Below are positions 46,161 through 59,545 of a stretch of 64,000 nucleotides of DNA, in pieces. The stretch's first letter is position 1, and each line of letters starts with the position of its first letter. The stretch comes from Armatimonadota bacterium (GTDB lineage: Bacteria; Armatimonadota; Fimbriimonadia; Fimbriimonadales; Fimbriimonadaceae). Below the pieces are notes generated by a model. The model did not search any database. It was not told the origin of the DNA and saw only the letters and a program-made list of their open reading frames with translations. Both the position numbers and the translations under genes were made by a program. The stretch is taken from NCBI GenBank assembly GCA_022563855.1, contig JADFMN010000004.1:62001-126000 (forward strand), read 5' to 3'.

Positions 46161-48170
46161 ATGGCCAAGCGCCCAATTACGGCGGCCGACCTGCTGAAGA
46201 TTCAGTTCGTCTCCGACCCGCAGATGAGCCCTGACGGATCGCGAGTCCTGTTCGTAAAGACGCACGTCGACAAGGACAAGAACAAGTACGTCGGTAACCT
46301 CTTTACCGTCGATGTCGAGAGCGGCGAAGTAAAGCAGTGGACGCAGGGCGAGAAGCCTGGCGGCATGGGGCGCTGGTCGCCTGACGGCTCTTCGATAGCC
46401 TTCGTTGCCGGTCGCGTTGACAGTTCGTCGCAGGTTTTCATCCTGCCGACCGAAGGAGGCGAGGCGCGCAAGCTGACGTCGCTGCCAGAGGGCGCGATCG
46501 GTGAGATCAAGTGGTCGCCAGACGGACTGCGCATCGCCTTCACCTTCCGCGAGGTTGCCGAAGATCGCACGAGCAAAGCAAGCAAAGAGCGCAAAGAGAA
46601 AGGCGGAAGCCCGCCGCCGTGGGAGATCGACGAGCTGTGGTACCGCATGGACGAAGACGGTTACTTCGGCGGCCAGAGGTTCAAGCTGTACGTCGTCGAC
46701 GTCGCGACCGGCGAGCACCGAATGCTGTACGGCAAGGACAAGCTCGGATTCTACAGTTTCGACTGGCTGCCGAACAGCTCCGGCCTCGCGGTCGCGCACT
46801 CGGCGCACCGCAAAGAGCCATTGCTGAAAAAGCCGAACGACCAGGTCTACATCGTGCCGCTCAACGGCAAGGTCAAGATGATCTCCGGCCTCGCGAAAGG
46901 GCCGAAGGGGAACCTCAAAGTCTCGCCGGACGGAAAGCAGGTCGCGTTCCTCGGCGACCACATCCAAGAAGAGGTGTGGGGCATGCGGAACACCCGGCTT
47001 TACGTTGCGCCGATGCGCGGCGGCGGGCAGAGGTGCCTCAGCGAACGGTCCGACTTCTGCCTCGCAACGTACACCCTGAGCGACACCGGTGCGGGGGGAG
47101 AGGGCGTTCTCGAATGGGCGCCGAACGGCAAGAGCATTTTCGTCATGGCCGGCACCGAGGGCACCGCGCAAATCGGCAAAGTCTCGGTCGCAAGAGGCGG
47201 AGTCAAGCTCCTGACAGAGGGCCAACACGTGCTCGCGCCAGGTTCAACAAGCGCGGACGGCAAGATGATGGCTCTCACGCGAGGCACGACAACCTCTCCA
47301 GCAGAGGTCGCCGTCTTCGACGGAGAGGAAGTCAGGGTACTAACGGATTTCAACAAGCAGCTCTTGAAAGATATCGAGATTTCAAAGCCGGTCGGTACGT
47401 GGGTGACCTCTGCAGACGGAACGAAAGTCCACACCTGGGTCATGAAGCCGCCACGGTTCAAGAGAGGCCGGAAGTACCCGGCGGTCTTGGAGATCCACGG
47501 CGGGCCGCACTGCCAGTACGGCTGGGCGTTCTTCCACGAGTTCCAACTGCTCGCCGCGCAGGGTTACGTCGTGGTGTTCAGCAACCCGCGCGGGTCGAAG
47601 GGGTACGGCGAGGCGTTCTGCGAGGCGATCCGGCGCGATTGGGGCAACAAGGACTGGGCCGACGTCGAGGCCGTCAAGGATTGGATGGCTTCGCGGAGCT
47701 ACGTCAACACGAAGAAGATGGGCGTGATGGGCGGCTCGTACGGCGGGTTCATGACCAACTGGGCGATCGGCCACACCAACGACTTCGTCGGCGCGATCAC
47801 CGACCGCTGCGTGTTCAACTGGACCTCGATGGCCGGCAACAGCGACTTCCCGCTCAACCGCGACGACTACTTCGGCGGCTGCGCGTGGGGACCGCTCAAG
47901 AACATCGAGGATCTATGGCGACAGTCGCCGTGCTCCAGCTTCGACAAGGTCAAGACCCCGACGCTCGTGATACACAGCGAGGGCGACCTGCGCTGCAACG
48001 TCGAGCAGGCCGAGCAGGTGTTCTACGTGCTGAAGTCGATCGGTGTCGAGACGCGCTTCGTGCGGTATCCGGCGAACTCCTCTCACGGCCTCTCCCGCAA
48101 CGGCCCCCCGGACCTGCGGATTCACCGGCTTGGGGAGATCGTAGACTGGTGGAAAAGGTGGCTACAATAG
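46161..48170 (+). CDS. S9 family peptidase (prolyl oligopeptidase / acylaminoacyl-peptidase type)
   Basis: 669 residues: an N-terminal beta-propeller with TolB/PD40-like blades (QMSPDGSRVLFV, RWSPDGSSIAFVAG, KVSPDGKQVAFLG) and a C-terminal alpha/beta hydrolase. The serine is Ser526 in GGSYGG, the aspartate lies in SEGDLRC and the histidine in NSSHGLSR. No signal peptide, so likely cytoplasmic, acting on short peptides. The start ATG at 46161 is preceded by no strong ribosome site. An extended frame inside this gene on the same strand is a shadow. Confidence 0.94.
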   Translation: MAKRPITAADLLKIQFVSDPQMSPDGSRVLFVKTHVDKDKNKYVGNLFTVDVESGEVKQWTQGEKPGGMGRWSPDGSSIAFVAGRVDSSSQVFILPTEGGEARKLTSLPEGAIGEIKWSPDGLRIAFTFREVAEDRTSKASKERKEKGGSPPPWEIDELWYRMDEDGYFGGQRFKLYVVDVATGEHRMLYGKDKLGFYSFDWLPNSSGLAVAHSAHRKEPLLKKPNDQVYIVPLNGKVKMISGLAKGPKGNLKVSPDGKQVAFLGDHIQEEVWGMRNTRLYVAPMRGGGQRCLSERSDFCLATYTLSDTGAGGEGVLEWAPNGKSIFVMAGTEGTAQIGKVSVARGGVKLLTEGQHVLAPGSTSADGKMMALTRGTTTSPAEVAVFDGEEVRVLTDFNKQLLKDIEISKPVGTWVTSADGTKVHTWVMKPPRFKRGRKYPAVLEIHGGPHCQYGWAFFHEFQLLAAQGYVVVFSNPRGSKGYGEAFCEAIRRDWGNKDWADVEAVKDWMASRSYVNTKKMGVMGGSYGGFMTNWAIGHTNDFVGAITDRCVFNWTSMAGNSDFPLNRDDYFGGCAWGPLKNIEDLWRQSPCSSFDKVKTPTLVIHSEGDLRCNVEQAEQVFYVLKSIGVETRFVRYPANSSHGLSRNGPPDLRIHRLGEIVDWWKRWLQ

Positions 48171-48223
48171 TAGACATACGTCGGCTAGTTATGTTACCAT
48201 CATCTTGCAGGGAGAATTTACTG

Positions 48224-49099
48224 ATGGGTGATCAAGAATTTGGAAGTTCGTGGACAAGTGACAAGCTAAGAGTATTGAGGGAGTACCTTAGCGCGTATCT
48301 CCACATCCTTAGGGGGCCAAAAGCCAAGGGATTCTACAGACTGACATATCTGGATGCATTTGCGGGTACCGGGAATATTGCGATAGGGAAGCGCGACCCA
48401 AGGGGGCAGGATCGGCTGATTGATGTCGGGGACGAAGAGACCCTAATTGCCGGCAGTGCCCGAGTAGCGCTCGAGCAGGAAATGAGTTTCGACGAGTACG
48501 TCTTCATTGAGCAAAGTTCAGCTAAGGTTGCGCGATTGGAATCGCTCAAGAACGAGTATCCAGAGCGGGCCGACAAAATTCGTGTCGTAAGAGAAGACGC
48601 GAACTCGTTCCTTCAGAGCTGGTCGAAAACAGTATCGAGGCAAACCAGGGCAGTTGTGTTCATCGACCCATTCGGAATGCAGCTCTCTTGGGAGACGATG
48701 GTTTCGCTCGCAGAAACCGGATGTTGCGATGTGTGGATTCTGTTTCCCCTCAGCGCAGTGAACCGTGTTCTAACCGAGAAGGGAAAGTTGCCCGACCAGT
48801 GGGCAAGCAGGCTTGACGTTTTCTTTGGCACCAAGGAGTGGAGGAAGGCGTTTTACAAGGAGCGAGAGGTTGAAACCCTGTTTGGTACCGAGATCGAAAC
48901 TATCCGACAGGCGGATTTCAGTGCCATTTCGGAGTATTTCGCAGACAGGCTAAACGGCATATTTGCCGCCACAATCCGAGAGCCAAGAGTCTTAAGAAAC
49001 AGTCGAGGTACACCGCTCTTCTTGCTTTCATTTGCTACCGCAAATCCTAAATCGGTTAAGGTAGCGATTCGAGTAGCTCAGTACCTAGCGGAGAAATAA
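48224..49099 (+). CDS. tcmP: Three-Cys-motif partner protein TcmP
   Basis: 291 residues. TYLDAFAGTG at 41-50 looks like a SAM-binding motif I, and VVFIDPFGMQ (about 142-151) resembles a degenerate amino-methyltransferase DPPY site; FIEQSS lies between them. This matches the TcmP family, always encoded beside a three-cysteine (Gp37/Gp68-type) protein, as here. The biochemical role of the pair is not established to my knowledge. The ATG at 48224 has GGGAG upstream; another in-frame ATG is at 48191. Codon usage looks less GC-rich than its neighbours, hinting at transfer. Confidence 0.85.
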   Translation: MGDQEFGSSWTSDKLRVLREYLSAYLHILRGPKAKGFYRLTYLDAFAGTGNIAIGKRDPRGQDRLIDVGDEETLIAGSARVALEQEMSFDEYVFIEQSSAKVARLESLKNEYPERADKIRVVREDANSFLQSWSKTVSRQTRAVVFIDPFGMQLSWETMVSLAETGCCDVWILFPLSAVNRVLTEKGKLPDQWASRLDVFFGTKEWRKAFYKEREVETLFGTEIETIRQADFSAISEYFADRLNGIFAATIREPRVLRNSRGTPLFLLSFATANPKSVKVAIRVAQYLAEK

Positions 49100-49819
49100 A
49101 TGGCTTCGACAAGCTCGATCGAGTGGACGAACATGACGTGGAACCCGGTGACGGGATGCACGAAGGTCAGTCAGGGCTGTAAGCACTGCTACGCCGAGCG
49201 CATGGCGAAGCGGCTCAAGGCGATGGGTACGGAGCGGTACAAAAACGGGTTCAAACTGACCCTCCATCCTGATCTGATCGAACTGCCGAAGCAATGGAAA
49301 AAGCCGCGCCTTATCTTCGTGAACTCCATGAGCGACCTCTTCCACGAGAATATCCCGCTGGAGTTCATCGAACAGATATTCACGACGATCAAGGAGTGCC
49401 CGCAGCACACTTTCCAGGTGCTAACGAAGCGGAGCGAGCGACTGTCGCAGGTAGCCGGGGAGCTTGAATGGCCTGAGAATCTGTGGATGGGGGTCAGCAT
49501 CGAGGACGACCGCGTTATACAGCGTGTCCATGATCTGCGGACAGTTCCTGCGGCTGTAAGATTCCTCTCTTGTGAACCGCTCATCGGCCCGCTGGACGAT
49601 CTTCCGCTCGACGGGATCCACTGGGTCATCGTCGGGGGCGAGTCCGGCCCGAAGGCGAGACCGATGGACGGTGACTGGGCCCGCTCGATCCGAGCCCAAT
49701 GCTATGACGCCAATGTCAAGTTTTTCTTCAAGCAGTGGGGCGGTGTGCGCAAGCATGTGACCGGCAGGGAGCTTGACGGAAAATTCTACGATGACATGCC
49801 GGCGCGCGCATTTTCGTAG
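49100..49819 (+). CDS. Phage Gp37/Gp68 family (DUF5131) three-Cys-motif protein
   Basis: 239 residues. The N-terminus [14 protein letters not shown] is diagnostic of DUF5131, with cysteines 20, 27 and 30 spaced C-x6-C-x2-C, suggesting an Fe-S cluster as in radical SAM-like proteins. Later motifs NSMSDLFHE and [14 protein letters not shown] are also typical. It begins right after the tcmP stop (TAA then ATG), so the two are one unit. Found in phages and mobile regions. Function unknown. Confidence 0.9.
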
Positions 49820-52567: not shown

Positions 52568-54472
52568 TTGCAAGTGTTACCCCTGTCCGAGCGGTTGAAA
52601 GAGGCAGTGCGAAGTGGATCGCCAGAAGAGGCGCTTTCCGCGCTTTTCGTGCGCGAACTGGGTTGGGTGCCGGGGGAAGGAGCCGACGTCGTCGCACTTT
52701 CGGGATCGCTCTCGCTCGTGATTGTGGCCGATTCTAACACAGCGCCGAGGGCTCGGGAGATTGGCGCAGTGCTCGACTCGGACTCGCGCACGATGACGTT
52801 GCTAGCGCTGACAGAGGGCACAGTATCCCGTCTCGATATAGACCGCGAGCACCCAAAGTCGATGGTATTGGACAGGCTGCGTCTGCTGCGCCGCGAGCAG
52901 GGCGTGCACGAGCGGGACGAAGCCAAGGATGATCGAAGGCTGGCCGCGTGCTTTCAAGCCAAAGGAATCGCCGACTCGTTCCTCGCCGACTATCGTAGCT
53001 TGTTCGAGAAGTACGTAGATCGAGTTGAGCCGATGCCGGCAGCGAGGTCGCGATCAGCCGCGGTGCAAGATTCGCGGGCTCTGAGAGGCCAGCTTCTGAA
53101 TCGTTGCCTGATCCGTGTGCTGCTGCTTGCGTTTTTGCAGAGCAAAGGGTGGTTCAGATTCGCGGACAGCCAGAACTACATCGCCGAACTGTATCGCGCG
53201 TGGAAGGCCGCACCGGGCGCGTACCGATTTCACCAGCGGCTCGCGATCCTGTTCTTCAACGCCCTCAACCAGCCGTCGGCAGCTGCGCGAGAGTTGCTCC
53301 GCCCGCAGGTCGGAGACGTTCCGCATCTCGGCGGGGGCATCTTCTCCCCTGAGCAGTTCGAGAGCGAGTCGGCGGTGATCCCCGACGAGCTGTTCGACGA
53401 GCTGATCGGTGAGAACGGCCTGTTGGGGAAGTACGAGTTTTCGACCAAGGAGAGCGGGCCGAACGAAACGGTTGTCGCCGTCAATCCGGAAATTCTCGGC
53501 GCGGTGTTCAGCGCGTTCATTCAAGGCGACGACAAGGCGGCAATCGTCGACACGAAGTCTCTGCGCGAGGGTTGTCGCGGTGTTATCGCTGCGCACATGG
53601 ACACCGCCCCGGCGTTGGATCTGCCGCCCGAGCGCAAGCGGCTCAAGGAGTGGATGGTGCGCGTGAGAGCGATCAACATCATCGACGAGGAGTGCGGCGC
53701 GGGTTCGTACCTTGTGGCGATGCTCGAAGAGATCACCGCGCTGATCGAACGCATCTCGAAACAGCTGGGGAATCGACCTCTCCGTCGATCTGCGTTGAAG
53801 GCACAAGTCGCAAAGGACAACCTCAGGGGGCTCGACAAGAGCGATTTGGCGGTTCAAGTGACGATGATGAGGCTCGCGCTAGCCATTCTTTCAGAAGAGT
53901 CTGACGATGCGCCTCTCGCTCTCCCAAACTTGCGGCAGGTCGTCCGCGTCGGGGGCGCGCTGAAACCAGATCGGCCCGCTTCCATTCGACCGGTTCCTCC
54001 AGAAAGCGCAGAGGTCGAGTACAAGTCGACGTTCGAGTGGAACTCGCGCAAGGGCGCCCGCGACCCTTCGCTTCGCCTTGCGACGCTCAAGACCGTTGCA
54101 GCGTTTCTGAACAGCGAGGGCGGCAAGCTGTATCTCGGAGTGAGCGACTCCGGAGAGCCGATCGGGCTTGCGGGCGACTTCGGTCTTTTCTCCGAGGGCG
54201 GATCGCGGGACGGCTTCGAGGGCAAGCTGCGCGAAGCGCTGAAGAACCACTTGGAGCCGCTACCGCTTGGCAACGTATCGATCATGTGGCAGAGATTCGG
54301 CGATCTCGACGTTTGCGTCGTCTGCGTGACGCCAACCTCGACAGTCACGTACGTCCGGAGCAAAGACGACCACGGCCAACAGGTCGAGTCGATCTACGTG
54401 CGAGACGGGAACCGAACGTTGGACCTCAAGGGCAAACAGCGCGACCAGTTCGTGTTATCGCGGCATTCTTGA
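52568..54472 (+). CDS. Truncated type IIG/Eco57I-like methyltransferase fused to an AlbA_2 (Schlafen-type) domain
   Basis: 634 residues with an architecture I do not recognise as known. Residues 1-150 look like a type IIG N-terminal region without a visible PD-ExK nuclease motif. Residues 160-320 follow the helical connector (GGGIFSPEQFE, IPDELFDELI, VNPEILGAVFSAFI). Residues 370-465 are the SAM-binding half of an N6-adenine methyltransferase, with motif I altered to IIDEECGAGSYL and then LRGLDKSDLAVQ and LPNLRQVVRVGGAL. The catalytic NPPY half and target-recognition domain are missing. In their place residues 479-600 form an AlbA_2 domain (EVEYKST, FLNSEGGKLYLGVSDSGEPIGL). TTG start at 52568; a GTG at 52574 is equally possible. 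Confidence 0.8.
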   Translation: MQVLPLSERLKEAVRSGSPEEALSALFVRELGWVPGEGADVVALSGSLSLVIVADSNTAPRAREIGAVLDSDSRTMTLLALTEGTVSRLDIDREHPKSMVLDRLRLLRREQGVHERDEAKDDRRLAACFQAKGIADSFLADYRSLFEKYVDRVEPMPAARSRSAAVQDSRALRGQLLNRCLIRVLLLAFLQSKGWFRFADSQNYIAELYRAWKAAPGAYRFHQRLAILFFNALNQPSAAARELLRPQVGDVPHLGGGIFSPEQFESESAVIPDELFDELIGENGLLGKYEFSTKESGPNETVVAVNPEILGAVFSAFIQGDDKAAIVDTKSLREGCRGVIAAHMDTAPALDLPPERKRLKEWMVRVRAINIIDEECGAGSYLVAMLEEITALIERISKQLGNRPLRRSALKAQVAKDNLRGLDKSDLAVQVTMMRLALAILSEESDDAPLALPNLRQVVRVGGALKPDRPASIRPVPPESAEVEYKSTFEWNSRKGARDPSLRLATLKTVAAFLNSEGGKLYLGVSDSGEPIGLAGDFGLFSEGGSRDGFEGKLREALKNHLEPLPLGNVSIMWQRFGDLDVCVVCVTPTSTVTYVRSKDDHGQQVESIYVRDGNRTLDLKGKQRDQFVLSRHS

Positions 54473-56758: not shown

Positions 56759-56803
56759 CCCGAACCCCCAAACTTCTCAACATCCAAAGTAAACTCCAAG
56801 CCA

Positions 56804-57370
56804 ATGACTCAAACCCGAGACGATGCCTGGAACCTGCTTTGCGAGCACACGCCGAGCGACAGCCTGCGACGGCACTGCATGGGAGCGGAAACCTGCATGC
56901 GGTGGTACGCCGAGAAGCTGGGAGAGGACGTCGAGAAGTGGGGCATCGCCGGGCTCTTGCACGACTTCGACTACGAGCAGCACCCCGACGAGCATCCGCT
57001 TTGGGGGATTGCGCTGCTGAAAGACCAAGGGTGGCCGGAAGACGTGATCCAGGCCATCGGAGCGCACTACACCGCCAAGACCGGAGTCGAGCCGACCGCG
57101 CCGATGGACAAGTACCTCTTCGCCTGCGACGAGCTGAGCGGGTTCATCACGGCGGTCACCTACGTCCGACCGAGCAAGAGCATCATGGAGGTGAAGGTCA
57201 AGAGCGTGACCAAAAAGCTCAAGACGCTCAACTTCGCCGCAGGGGTCAACCGCGACGATGTGTACAACGGAGCCGAGGTCATCGGGACCGACCTGAACGA
57301 GCACATCGGCAACTGCATCACGGCGATGCAGGGGAACGCCGAGGCGCTCGGCCTCAAGGGCGACGTCTAG
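56804..57370 (+). CDS. HD-domain hydrolase
   Basis: 188 residues from the ATG at 56804, the start of similarity to HD phosphohydrolases: His24 in LRRHCMGAE, then His53-Asp54 in GLLHDFDYE, and a following aspartate in the KYLFACDELSG segment. HD enzymes act on nucleotides or phosphoesters. The frame stays open upstream through the repeat region, but that part is low-complexity repeat. It has no ribosome site; TAAACT lies eight bases before the ATG. Its stop overlaps the convergent OstA-like gene by 4 bp. Confidence 0.88.
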   Translation: MTQTRDDAWNLLCEHTPSDSLRRHCMGAETCMRWYAEKLGEDVEKWGIAGLLHDFDYEQHPDEHPLWGIALLKDQGWPEDVIQAIGAHYTAKTGVEPTAPMDKYLFACDELSGFITAVTYVRPSKSIMEVKVKSVTKKLKTLNFAAGVNRDDVYNGAEVIGTDLNEHIGNCITAMQGNAEALGLKGDV

Positions 57371-58683
57371 GCGCCTCCGTCGTCGTCATCAGTGAACACG
57401 GTTGCAGCGAAGTTGTTGCCGGTGACCCGTTCGTTGTCCTCGTTCGTCGAGAGAGTAATGTCCGTCGCTTTGAACCGGTCGCCGATCGACAGCAGCAGCA
57501 TTGCGTCCTGTTTTCCCTCGCTGCTGAGCAGTGTAAGCGTCTCGGCTTCGCCATCGTAGAGCGCGCTGTGCGCCCACCCGAACCTCCAACCTGACGCCAA
57601 GTCCTGCCGCGCAAACGGATTCCCGGTGATGACGGCCCGCCGTTCGCCGTCCTTGTACCAGTACTCGACCTGGTCGGCGACGACCTTGGTAGGGAACTTG
57701 CGAATGTTCTCTGTGTCGCGCAGGGCTTCGATCTGCTCGTCGGTTGCGGCCTGCGGATCGGTCGGCGTGCCGTCGCGGTCCATCCGGGGCACGTCCAGTA
57801 TCTTGGTCTCCTCGAGCTTCTCGTCGTCCTCGGCTTTGATGAGCATCGTGACAGAGCCGACGAGCTTCACTCTGCGCTCGTCGCGGTAGACCGTCGCTTC
57901 GTCGCACTTCAAGTTGACGTCGACGCTCCAGTACCGCACGTTCCCGGTCGCGATCAGCACGTCCTCCTCGCGGTAGTGGGTGACGAAATCGGCGACGACG
58001 ATGATCTCGCCATCGGTTGCGCGGGCCTCTTCGTAGCGGCCCACATCCCCAACGATCTCCATATGGAGGCCGTGGATCTGCCATTCGCGGCGTTCGTCTT
58101 GGACCGGGTCCTGCAGCTTTCCGGTCCACGAAACTTCGCCTGCAGTCAGGATTCTGCCATCGGTGACATACCCCACTTCGGATGCGATCAAATAACCTCC
58201 GTCGAGCGTCCCGGTCACTTCACCTTGGATCGTCAGAGTGCCGGTGTCCTTGTCGTACTGAAACTCGTCGGCGAACAAGTCCATCCGATCGTTCCAAACG
58301 TGTACGCCCTCGTCGGCGAGCAGCTGTCGAGTGTAGTACCGATACACCGCTCGCTCGGCTTCGTAAAAAAAGTCGTCGTCTTCCTCCATCCAGAAGTGGC
58401 CGTTTCGGACGCCGGTCATCGTAATCGTGCTTCGGTCTCTTGTCACCGACGCCGAGTCCACGGTTGCGCTTGACGTCAAGCGGTCGAACTCGTGAATTTT
58501 GAACTCGAAGTTTGAGATCGCAATCCCCTCGGTCGCTCCGAGCGGCTCGTCCCCGCCACGGAACTTCACGAACGCGTCGGCGCGCAGTATCTCCGCCATC
58601 GAAACCCAGCCGACGCCGATGGTCAGCAGCGCAACGGCGGGCACTCCAATTATGCGAACCACTTTCTTAGCTGATCGTGACAT
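57367..58683 (-). CDS. OstA/LptA-LptC-like periplasmic protein
   Basis: 438 residues with an N-terminal membrane anchor (about 8-30). The rest is a string of repeated short beta-strands of OstA type, for example ADEFQYDKDTGTLTIQGEV, RYEEARATDGEIIVVADF and VNLKCDEATVYRDERRVKL, as in proteins that carry lipopolysaccharide across the periplasm. The length exceeds LptA (about 185) and LptC (about 190), as if both were joined. It is the last gene of the leftward envelope operon and overlaps the preceding lipoprotein gene by 17 bp. Confidence 0.78.
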   Translation of the reverse strand: MSRSAKKVVRIIGVPAVALLTIGVGWVSMAEILRADAFVKFRGGDEPLGATEGIAISNFEFKIHEFDRLTSSATVDSASVTRDRSTITMTGVRNGHFWMEEDDDFFYEAERAVYRYYTRQLLADEGVHVWNDRMDLFADEFQYDKDTGTLTIQGEVTGTLDGGYLIASEVGYVTDGRILTAGEVSWTGKLQDPVQDERREWQIHGLHMEIVGDVGRYEEARATDGEIIVVADFVTHYREEDVLIATGNVRYWSVDVNLKCDEATVYRDERRVKLVGSVTMLIKAEDDEKLEETKILDVPRMDRDGTPTDPQAATDEQIEALRDTENIRKFPTKVVADQVEYWYKDGERRAVITGNPFARQDLASGWRFGWAHSALYDGEAETLTLLSSEGKQDAMLLLSIGDRFKATDITLSTNEDNERVTGNNFAATVFTDDDDGGA

Positions 58684-59545
58684 TGACAACTTTCAGATCG
58701 TCCGGCGAATTCAGTGTGACAGGCTCGGACCCGGTTTTGTTTCCAGACGTCGCCACGATAGTGTACGTTCCAGCGGGCACCCAGAAGCGGTATTGAGCGG
58801 CGATATCGGCAATGGTAGTCCGGATCGTCGTTCCCCCCTGCTTGATCTCGACGGTCGCGCCGATGCCATCGCCGACAGGGAGTATCGTTCCGGTGATGTT
58901 GAACGGCGGCGGCGGCGGATCGCCGGAGCTCTCGGGCGAGAGCGGAATGGTGCCGACCTCTATTACGCCGCCGATCGGCGTCGTAGGCGGGCTGAACAGA
59001 CGAGTCACGAACTCCTGCTTAGTGACCTCCCCGATCAGATCCCCGAACGCGGCGGGACTGCTGAACGAGTACGCGACTTCGATAAGCGTGAATTCTCCGC
59101 TGACGTCTGTGACCGCGCTTCTGCCTGCAAGCTTGACGGTTGCGTCTGCGAGAGCGCTGAGATCAGACGCGTCGACGACGGTACCGTGCACGGTGATCAG
59201 GTCAGGTCCGATGTAAAGATCGCCGATATCCACGGTGCCTTGCACCGGCGGAAAGGTGAAGGTCATGACAACCGGAGGCTCCCCGCCGCCGGCGGAATAG
59301 CTGACTAGCACGCTGTCCGTGTTGACTGAAACCTCGAGCGTGAAGGACCCGTCCACGATGTCCGATTGGGTCGAGCCGAGGCCTGCGGCAACGCTTGCTG
59401 GCGGATCCGGCGCAGCGTTGCTCTCGATCCAAAGTATGCGACCTACTAGAATCGCGTTGGCCGGGCCGCCTCCGCCCCCTCCTCCCCCAGCGCATCCAAG
59501 CAAGACGAGTCCAGCAAGGAAGATCGCAGCGCAGCCGCGCCTCAA
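58667..59545 (-). CDS. Lipoprotein with carboxypeptidase-regulatory-like domains
   Basis: 292 residues. The leader ends in LVLLGC, a lipobox with Cys18, followed by a run of glycines. Two beta-sandwich segments (about 110-180, with the pattern VHGTVVDASDLSALADATVKL; and about 215-290, with ITGTILPVGDGIGATVEI) are of the CarboxypepD_reg type, found in outer-membrane and surface proteins. The TTG start overlaps the stop of the upstream gene (TTGA). Confidence 0.8.
   Translation of the reverse strand: MRRGCAAIFLAGLVLLGCAGGGGGGGGPANAILVGRILWIESNAAPDPPASVAAGLGSTQSDIVDGSFTLEVSVNTDSVLVSYSAGGGEPPVVMTFTFPPVQGTVDIGDLYIGPDLITVHGTVVDASDLSALADATVKLAGRSAVTDVSGEFTLIEVAYSFSSPAAFGDLIGEVTKQEFVTRLFSPPTTPIGGVIEVGTIPLSPESSGDPPPPPFNITGTILPVGDGIGATVEIKQGGTTIRTTIADIAAQYRFWVPAGTYTIVATSGNKTGSEPVTLNSPDDLKVVNVTIS

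What the first reader, a model, noticed from the sequence alone, without database searches (positions are those of the whole stretch)
52568..54472. Methyltransferase without its catalytic half, fused to an AlbA_2 (Schlafen-type) domain
Seen: a type IIG-like N-terminal and helical connector region, a SAM-binding half with motif I changed from the usual DPxCGSGxF to DEECGAGSY, then no NPPY motif and no target-recognition domain. The protein runs into an AlbA_2 domain with its ExExKST and FxNSxGGxLxxGVxD signatures. Known: type IIG enzymes are restriction-modification proteins, and AlbA_2 domains occur in Schlafen-like and defence-associated proteins. Inferred: a restriction scaffold turned into a nucleic-acid or SAM sensor with an AlbA_2 output, possibly a one-gene antiviral or regulatory system.
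Basis: partly seen in the sequence, partly recalled or inferred. Interest (0 to 1): 0.85.

Follow-up and report, generated by a model that had tools for sequence, protein, structure and literature searches.

The report
Dead DNA methyltransferase joined to Schlafen nuclease
A family of bacterial proteins, found so far only in one family of Armatimonadota, arose when a DNA-restriction-type enzyme lost its methylating half but kept a Schlafen-like nuclease end (the kind that cuts tRNA in human antiviral proteins), and its variable, come-and-go evolution suggests a compact immune protein, although nobody has tested this.

Summary
The reading is right: window 52568-54472 encodes 634 aa with a type IIG/MmeI-like helical connector and MTase half (to motif III), no NPPY, no TRD, then AlbA_2. 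The junction is not an assembly artefact. Homologues with it ("short forms") occur in 16 genomes, with further-reduced AlbA_2 versions in 6 more, all in one family (85 genomes searched) and in no other genome of 291 Armatimonadota searched. They form one clade beside complete MTase-TRD-AlbA_2 proteins paired with HKD-SNF2 helicases, one of them in this genome. So a defence methyltransferase lost motif IV to TRD once; its MTase half then decayed (identity 28% vs 42% in complete forms; motif I lost in all ten tested), while AlbA_2 became the conserved part (50% vs 34%) and keeps E479-E484-K486, the triad essential for SLFN11 tRNase activity. A SAM sensor is unlikely. The gene sits at a mostly fixed locus (S9 peptidase-[Vsr]-short form-HD hydrolase), with a clean empty site in one sister genome and, in one genus, alleles far more diverged than their flanks. 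Best model: a Schlafen-type RNase effector controlled by a non-catalytic restriction scaffold; antiviral role inferred, untested.

The parts
52568..54472 (+). the gene: pseudo-methyltransferase / AlbA_2 fusion, 634 aa
52568..52912 (+). N-terminal alpha/beta domain, residues 1-115; conserved only in the longest short forms; no recognised fold
52913..53632 (+). MmeI/PglX-like helical and connector region, residues 116-355
53633..53962 (+). N-terminal half of the MTase fold (to motif III, LPNLRQVVRVGGAL), residues 356-465; no motif IV
53690..53716 (+). motif I position, DEECGAGSY, residues 375-383 (DPACGSGAY in complete relatives)
53963..53992 (+). junction / low-confidence linker, residues 466-475; same position in all short forms that keep the MTase half
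53993..54469 (+). AlbA_2 (Schlafen-type) domain, residues 476-634
54002..54025 (+). E479-x4-E484-x-K486, same spacing as SLFN11 E209/E214/K216
54401..54418 (+). RDGNRT motif, residues 612-617; R612 invariant in short, reduced, standalone and complete forms
56786..57370 (+). HD(IG)-domain hydrolase; directly after, often overlapping, the short form in relatives; two genes away here
46161..48170 (+). S9 peptidase, conserved upstream neighbour of the locus in relatives
57367..58689 (-). LptD_N-like protein, conserved downstream neighbour in several relatives

Best explanation
The protein descends, by one loss of the segment from MTase motif IV through the target-recognition domain, from a complete type IIG/PglX-like adenine methyltransferase with a C-terminal AlbA_2 domain that belonged to an HKD(PLD)-SNF2-helicase restriction-type defence system. 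It can no longer methylate. Shown by sequence and model: the domains, the lost motifs, the single clade, the decay of the MTase half, and the kept E-E-K nuclease motif. Inferred: the remaining scaffold works as a fast-evolving sensor or docking part that holds the AlbA_2 domain off, or assembles it into a dimer, and an intruder-linked nucleic acid or protein releases it; AlbA_2 then acts as a Schlafen-type endoribonuclease (tRNA the likeliest substrate), stopping translation in the infected cell. The coupled HD hydrolase, and in some relatives Vsr, may be partners.
For: Single clade 13/13, 100/99 support, on the MTase half, and none of 13 short forms has NPP[YFWI] against 19 of 19 complete forms. 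AlbA_2 of short forms plus Armatimonad standalone copies form a supported set (97) whose next larger supported set adds mostly AlbA_2 of complete forms. Constraint moved: MTase half 27.9% and AlbA_2 50.3% median identity in short forms, 42.0% and 33.9% in complete ones. E479/E484/K486 in 20 of 22 short and 6 of 6 reduced forms; the corresponding three residues are essential in SLFN11, whereas D252 is not (PMC9482658). Fold match to SAMD9 and SLFN RNase domains. Immune-like variation: in G004/G076 the short forms have pS 0.67-0.80 against 0.02-0.54 for flanking genes; empty site in G015 against G075; tandem triplets in G004 and G076, in each of which one copy has lost E-E-K. Bacterial Schlafen-linked systems are reported as tRNA-cleaving anti-phage modules (cited in PMC12839542).
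Against: No phage or tRNA data. The locus is a mostly stable one among housekeeping genes, not a defence island; restriction to one family is unusual for a mobile immune gene. Fast divergence of the N-terminal half can also be plain relaxed constraint, and dN/dS is low (0.04-0.16). AlbA_2 domains also act as nucleic-acid-binding parts without cleavage (SLFN5 lacks a catalytic residue and is nuclease-deficient). The high dS in G004/G076 could reflect hidden paralogy, and in genus g47 dS is close to the flanks.
Confidence: 0.5

Rival explanations
1. Domesticated regulator: the scaffold binds DNA and AlbA_2 binds nucleic acid without cutting, controlling the neighbouring S9/HD genes or a stress response.
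For: Mostly conserved chromosomal locus with S9 peptidase, HD hydrolase, purS/purQ and hisG; start/stop overlap with the HD gene in several genomes; low dN/dS; ordinary base composition.
Against: Absent from about three quarters of the family (22 of 85 carry it), clean empty site, alleles far more diverged than flanks in one genus, tandem expansions; full RNase motif kept.
Confidence: 0.25
2. Part of a DNA repair or restriction unit with the Vsr endonuclease: the scaffold brings a nicking enzyme to modified or mismatched DNA, AlbA_2 being the DNA-binding arm.
For: Vsr (TIGR00632 above its cut-off) lies directly upstream, overlapping or nearly so, in G016, G007, G068, G066 and G065; Vsr-type nucleases are effectors in ARMADA helicases (PMC12458937).
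Against: 11 of 16 short-form genomes have no Vsr beside it, the window included; Vsr also occurs without the short form (G010, and behind lepA in G000).
Confidence: 0.12
3. Decaying relic of a restriction gene with no present function.
For: MTase half diverges fast and is deleted stepwise, down to about 345-aa versions.
Against: Open frames across genera; AlbA_2 at 50% median identity; dN/dS 0.04-0.16; E-E-K kept in nearly all.
Confidence: 0.05
4. SAM-sensing switch with AlbA_2 output.
For: The Rossmann half with a glycine-rich loop is still modelled; the closest relatives G078/G079 keep DSPCGTGSY and DAPCGTGTK.
Against: Motif I degenerate in most members and deleted in G022, G004:C54 and G076; the whole MTase half is gone in reduced forms.
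Confidence: 0.05
5. Assembly chimera or a deletion unique to this genome.
For: None found.
Against: Same junction in independent genomes, among them single-contig chromosomes (G007, G076); single copy in a 358-kb contig.
Confidence: 0.01

Closest known systems
MmeI-type / type IIG (IIL) restriction-methyltransferases
   Same: Helical connector and MTase N-half fold (5hr4, Z 18.1)
   Different: No motif IV, no TRD, no recognised nuclease domain, motif I decayed, AlbA_2 added
BREX PglX/BrxX and DISARM DrmMI methyltransferases
   Same: Same MTase superfamily; PglX structures align over 133-467 (Z about 12.8)
   Different: Those keep the catalytic motif and work with PglZ/BrxC or DrmABC; none were found beside this gene
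Complete MTase-TRD-AlbA_2 proteins beside HKD-SNF2 helicases (e.g. G000:C2 = L022; L157-L159)
   Same: Same N- and C-terminal domains in the same order; the inferred parent type
   Different: They have NPPY and TRD, DPACGSGAY, and a helicase partner; the fusion itself was not found described in the library searched
Schlafen RNases (SLFN11/13/14) and the SAMD9 tRNase domain
   Same: AlbA_2 fold; E-x4-E-x-K at the SLFN11 spacing
   Different: Only one AlbA_2 lobe here, MTase scaffold instead of SLFN linker/helicase; activity not shown
Bacterial Schlafens reported as tRNA-cutting anti-phage effectors (preprint cited in PMC12839542)
   Same: AlbA_2 effector with another domain as possible sensor
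   Different: Sensor here is a dead methyltransferase scaffold; that preprint was not readable here

Membership tests
Type IIG restriction-modification enzyme | Catalytic motif IV (NPPY/F) | tested here: not met
   absent in all 13 short forms searched, present in 19/19 complete relatives
Type IIG restriction-modification enzyme | SAM motif I | tested here: not met
   DEECGAGSY; DPACGSGAY or AF in all nine complete forms
Type IIG restriction-modification enzyme | Target-recognition domain | tested here: not met
   AlbA_2 follows motif III within about 15 residues
Type IIG restriction-modification enzyme | N-terminal nuclease domain | tested here: inconclusive
   residues 1-132 modelled at pLDDT 69, no significant fold match
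Type IIG restriction-modification enzyme | MmeI-like helical connector and MTase N-half | tested here: met
   5hr4_C Z 18.1, rmsd 3.6 over 278 residues
Schlafen / AlbA_2 superfamily (PF04326) | AlbA_2 domain above the curated cut-off | tested here: met
   54.7 bits, cut-off 25.3
Schlafen-type RNase | E, E, K active-site residues at SLFN11 spacing | tested here: met
   E479, E484, K486; E209, E214, K216 essential in SLFN11
Schlafen-type RNase | tRNA/RNA cleavage | not testable with these tools
   needs biochemistry
BREX / DISARM | Intact PglX/DrmMI methyltransferase with partner genes | tested here: not met
   no catalytic motif; the neighbours tested are not BREX/DISARM genes
Known anti-phage system (PADLOC, NCBIfam) | Curated full-length model match | tested here: not met
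   only partial matches to IIG/PglX models

The most novel reading that the evidence does not exclude
A restriction-derived immune receptor: a catalytically dead methyltransferase scaffold, freed from its helicase partner, acts alone or with an HD hydrolase as a diversifying sensor that fires a Schlafen tRNase, kept as a presence/absence locus with exchangeable alleles in one bacterial family.
Probability: 0.3. Interest if true: 0.8.

Novelty: new variant of a known kind. Interest (0 to 1): 0.6.

Why it matters
It offers a series of intermediates (complete enzyme, motif-free enzyme, MTase half deleted, about 345-aa AlbA_2 remnant) showing how a modification enzyme is stripped to its effector while the effector's active site is kept. 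It gives a directly testable case of a pseudoenzyme methyltransferase possibly acting as sensor or scaffold, and it points to complete MTase-AlbA_2 / HKD-SNF2 operons as a source of Schlafen-type effectors in restriction systems.

Tried and rejected
Assembly chimera: rejected. SAM sensor: motif I and later the whole MTase half lost in relatives. Phage origin: no relative in viral contigs (a single-protein query, so close relatives only); PHROGs only a weak AlbA_2 match. PDB sequence search with the whole protein: no hit. N-terminal domain as a degenerate nuclease: model and fold search inconclusive. Vsr as obligate partner: only 5 of 16 genomes. Literature searches found no description of MTase-AlbA_2 fusions, but the library is incomplete.

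Full report
WHAT IS THERE. Window 52568-54472 (+) is one open frame of 634 aa, single copy in a 358-kb contig of a 3.18-Mb genome. Pfam gives SLFN_AlbA_2 (479-617, 1.8e-14) and a sub-threshold MmeI_Mtase (356-439, 4e-6); PADLOC gives partial type IIG and PglX matches. AlphaFold2 on 15 short forms gave pLDDT 87. Residues 96-465 align to MmeI 157-462 (Z 18.1, rmsd 3.6, 278 residues) and 133-467 to BREX PglX (Z about 12.8); 465-634 align to the SAMD9 tRNase domain (Z 12.7-13.0), DIP2311 (12.6) and SLFN14/5/13/11 (10-11).

NOT A CHIMERA. The nearest annotated homologues are Armatimonadota, several labelled Fimbriimonadaceae or Fimbriimonadia. Searches of 41 relatives, the class (113 genomes) and the phylum (291) found short forms only in the window's own family: G000, G002, G004, G007, G016, G022, G065, G066, G068, G075-G079, G099, G100. 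A further-reduced gene of 343-368 aa sits at the same HD-linked place in G094-G098 and G101; its N-terminal part matches the short-form profile weakly, but all six score above 1200 shuffles. That makes 22 of the family's 85 genomes (85).

WHERE IT CAME FROM. Complete relatives (about 1000-1320 aa) carry DPACGSG and NPPY, those scanned with Pfam also a TaqI-type specificity domain, and several a C-terminal AlbA_2: own genome L022, G100, G076, G060, G006, G040, and outside the phylum in Acidobacteriota, Desulfobacteraceae and Zixiibacteriota. In L022, L157, L158 and L159 they lie next to an HKD(PLD)-SNF2 helicase. On the MTase half, 13 short forms are one clade (100/99); none has NPP[YFWI], while 19/19 complete forms do, and short forms break off right after motif III. 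On AlbA_2, short forms and Armatimonad standalone copies form a supported set (97), and the next larger one (95) adds AlbA_2 domains, about half of them from complete forms (a quick tree). A single internal loss of motif IV to TRD is the simplest account; separate re-fusion is not excluded.

WHAT STAYED UNDER CONSTRAINT. Median pairwise identity is 27.9% (MTase half) and 50.3% (AlbA_2) in ten short forms, AlbA_2 higher in 45/45 pairs; in nine complete forms it is 42.0% and 33.9%. Motif I is altered in all ten short forms compared and the motif-I region is missing in G022, G004:C54 and G076. E479, E484 and K486 are kept in 20/22 short and 6/6 reduced forms; the two exceptions are one copy of the tandem triplet in G004 and in G076. 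In SLFN11, E209, E214 and K216 (same spacing) are essential, D252 is not, the dimer is the active form and one active site suffices (PMC9482658). D527 (GVxD) is less conserved, in keeping with that.

LOCUS AND VARIATION. The fullest arrangement is G065: purQ-purS / S9 / Vsr / short form / HD / LptD_N / 916-aa-like protein. Subsets of these neighbours recur in most other genomes; the tandem triplets of G004 and G076 lie elsewhere, beside guaB. Vsr is directly upstream in five genomes. Short form and HD gene overlap by 4 bp in L154, L162, L165 and L166. The window keeps S9, HD, LptD_N and the 916-aa gene, with a TcmP/DUF5131 pair between S9 and the short form, and two genes between the short form and HD. 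G015 has an empty site between S9 and the next gene where its genus-mate G075 has the short form. Between G004 and G076, flanking genes have pS 0.02-0.54 (S9 dS 0.26, HD 0.31) and the four short-form pairs 0.67-0.80 (dS 1.7 to saturation): the alleles are more diverged than their surroundings, by exchange or hidden paralogy. In genus g47 the gene has dS close to its flanks but the highest, or (behind HD) the second-highest, dN nearby. dN/dS is 0.04-0.16 where measurable, so the protein is under selection.

HOW IT PROBABLY WORKS. Shown: it cannot be an ordinary methyltransferase; it keeps a complete Schlafen RNase motif; its N-terminal half is diverse and its AlbA_2 part conserved. Inferred: a Schlafen-type RNase effector held on a non-catalytic restriction scaffold, firing on an infection-linked cue. 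A nucleic-acid-binding regulator is the main rival. Its place among housekeeping genes is the strongest argument against a simple defence gene; presence/absence, divergent alleles and tandem expansion are the arguments for one.

NOVELTY. Literature in hand describes Schlafen RNases beside BREX and BREX-related systems (fused to a minimal histidine kinase and wHTH), HKD-SNF2 effectors in Type-2 BREX-related systems, and Vsr-type nucleases in ARMADA (PMC12839542, PMC12458937), but no MTase-AlbA_2 fusion or its dead derivative was found. I class it as a new variant of a known kind.

Noticed in passing
window 48200-49819: TcmP (TIGR04474) followed directly by a DUF5131/radical-SAM-like gene: the PADLOC candidate defence pair PDC-M41A/B; TcmP has lower GC3 (0.56) than its neighbours and the pair lies in the S9-short form interval.
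   Followed up: partly
L022:4097-15076 (own genome C2): Operon with HKD-SNF2 helicase, complete MTase-TRD-AlbA_2, a second AlbA_2 protein (294 aa), two unknown small proteins, an AAA ATPase (IetA-like) and an unknown 335-aa protein; no BREX-related DUF499 or DUF3780 among the genes scanned.
   Followed up: partly
L026:1633-7263 and L150:5812-11435: Tandem triplets of short forms beside guaB in two genomes of one genus; one copy in each has lost the nuclease residues, perhaps a dead dimer partner. In L150 that copy seems split into two frames.
   Followed up: partly
L031:6613-7128, L032:6498-6902, L034:5875-6453, L160:6153-6746, L161:6382-6897: Standalone AlbA_2 genes of 134-197 aa, one clade beside the short forms, two of them in the window's own genome.
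   Followed up: partly
L168:5089-8217 (G010): S9-Vsr-HD operon without the short form: Vsr overlaps HD by 4 bp, so Vsr can be coupled to HD directly.
   Followed up: no
L169:6019-6486 and L176:5282-5755: In the window's genus Vsr sits behind lepA, away from the short form, with no C5-methyltransferase noticed beside it (neighbours not scanned).
   Followed up: no
L038:4303-5436: Fic-family gene between S9 and Vsr/short form in G068; with TcmP in the window it hints that this interval takes up conflict-type genes.
   Followed up: no
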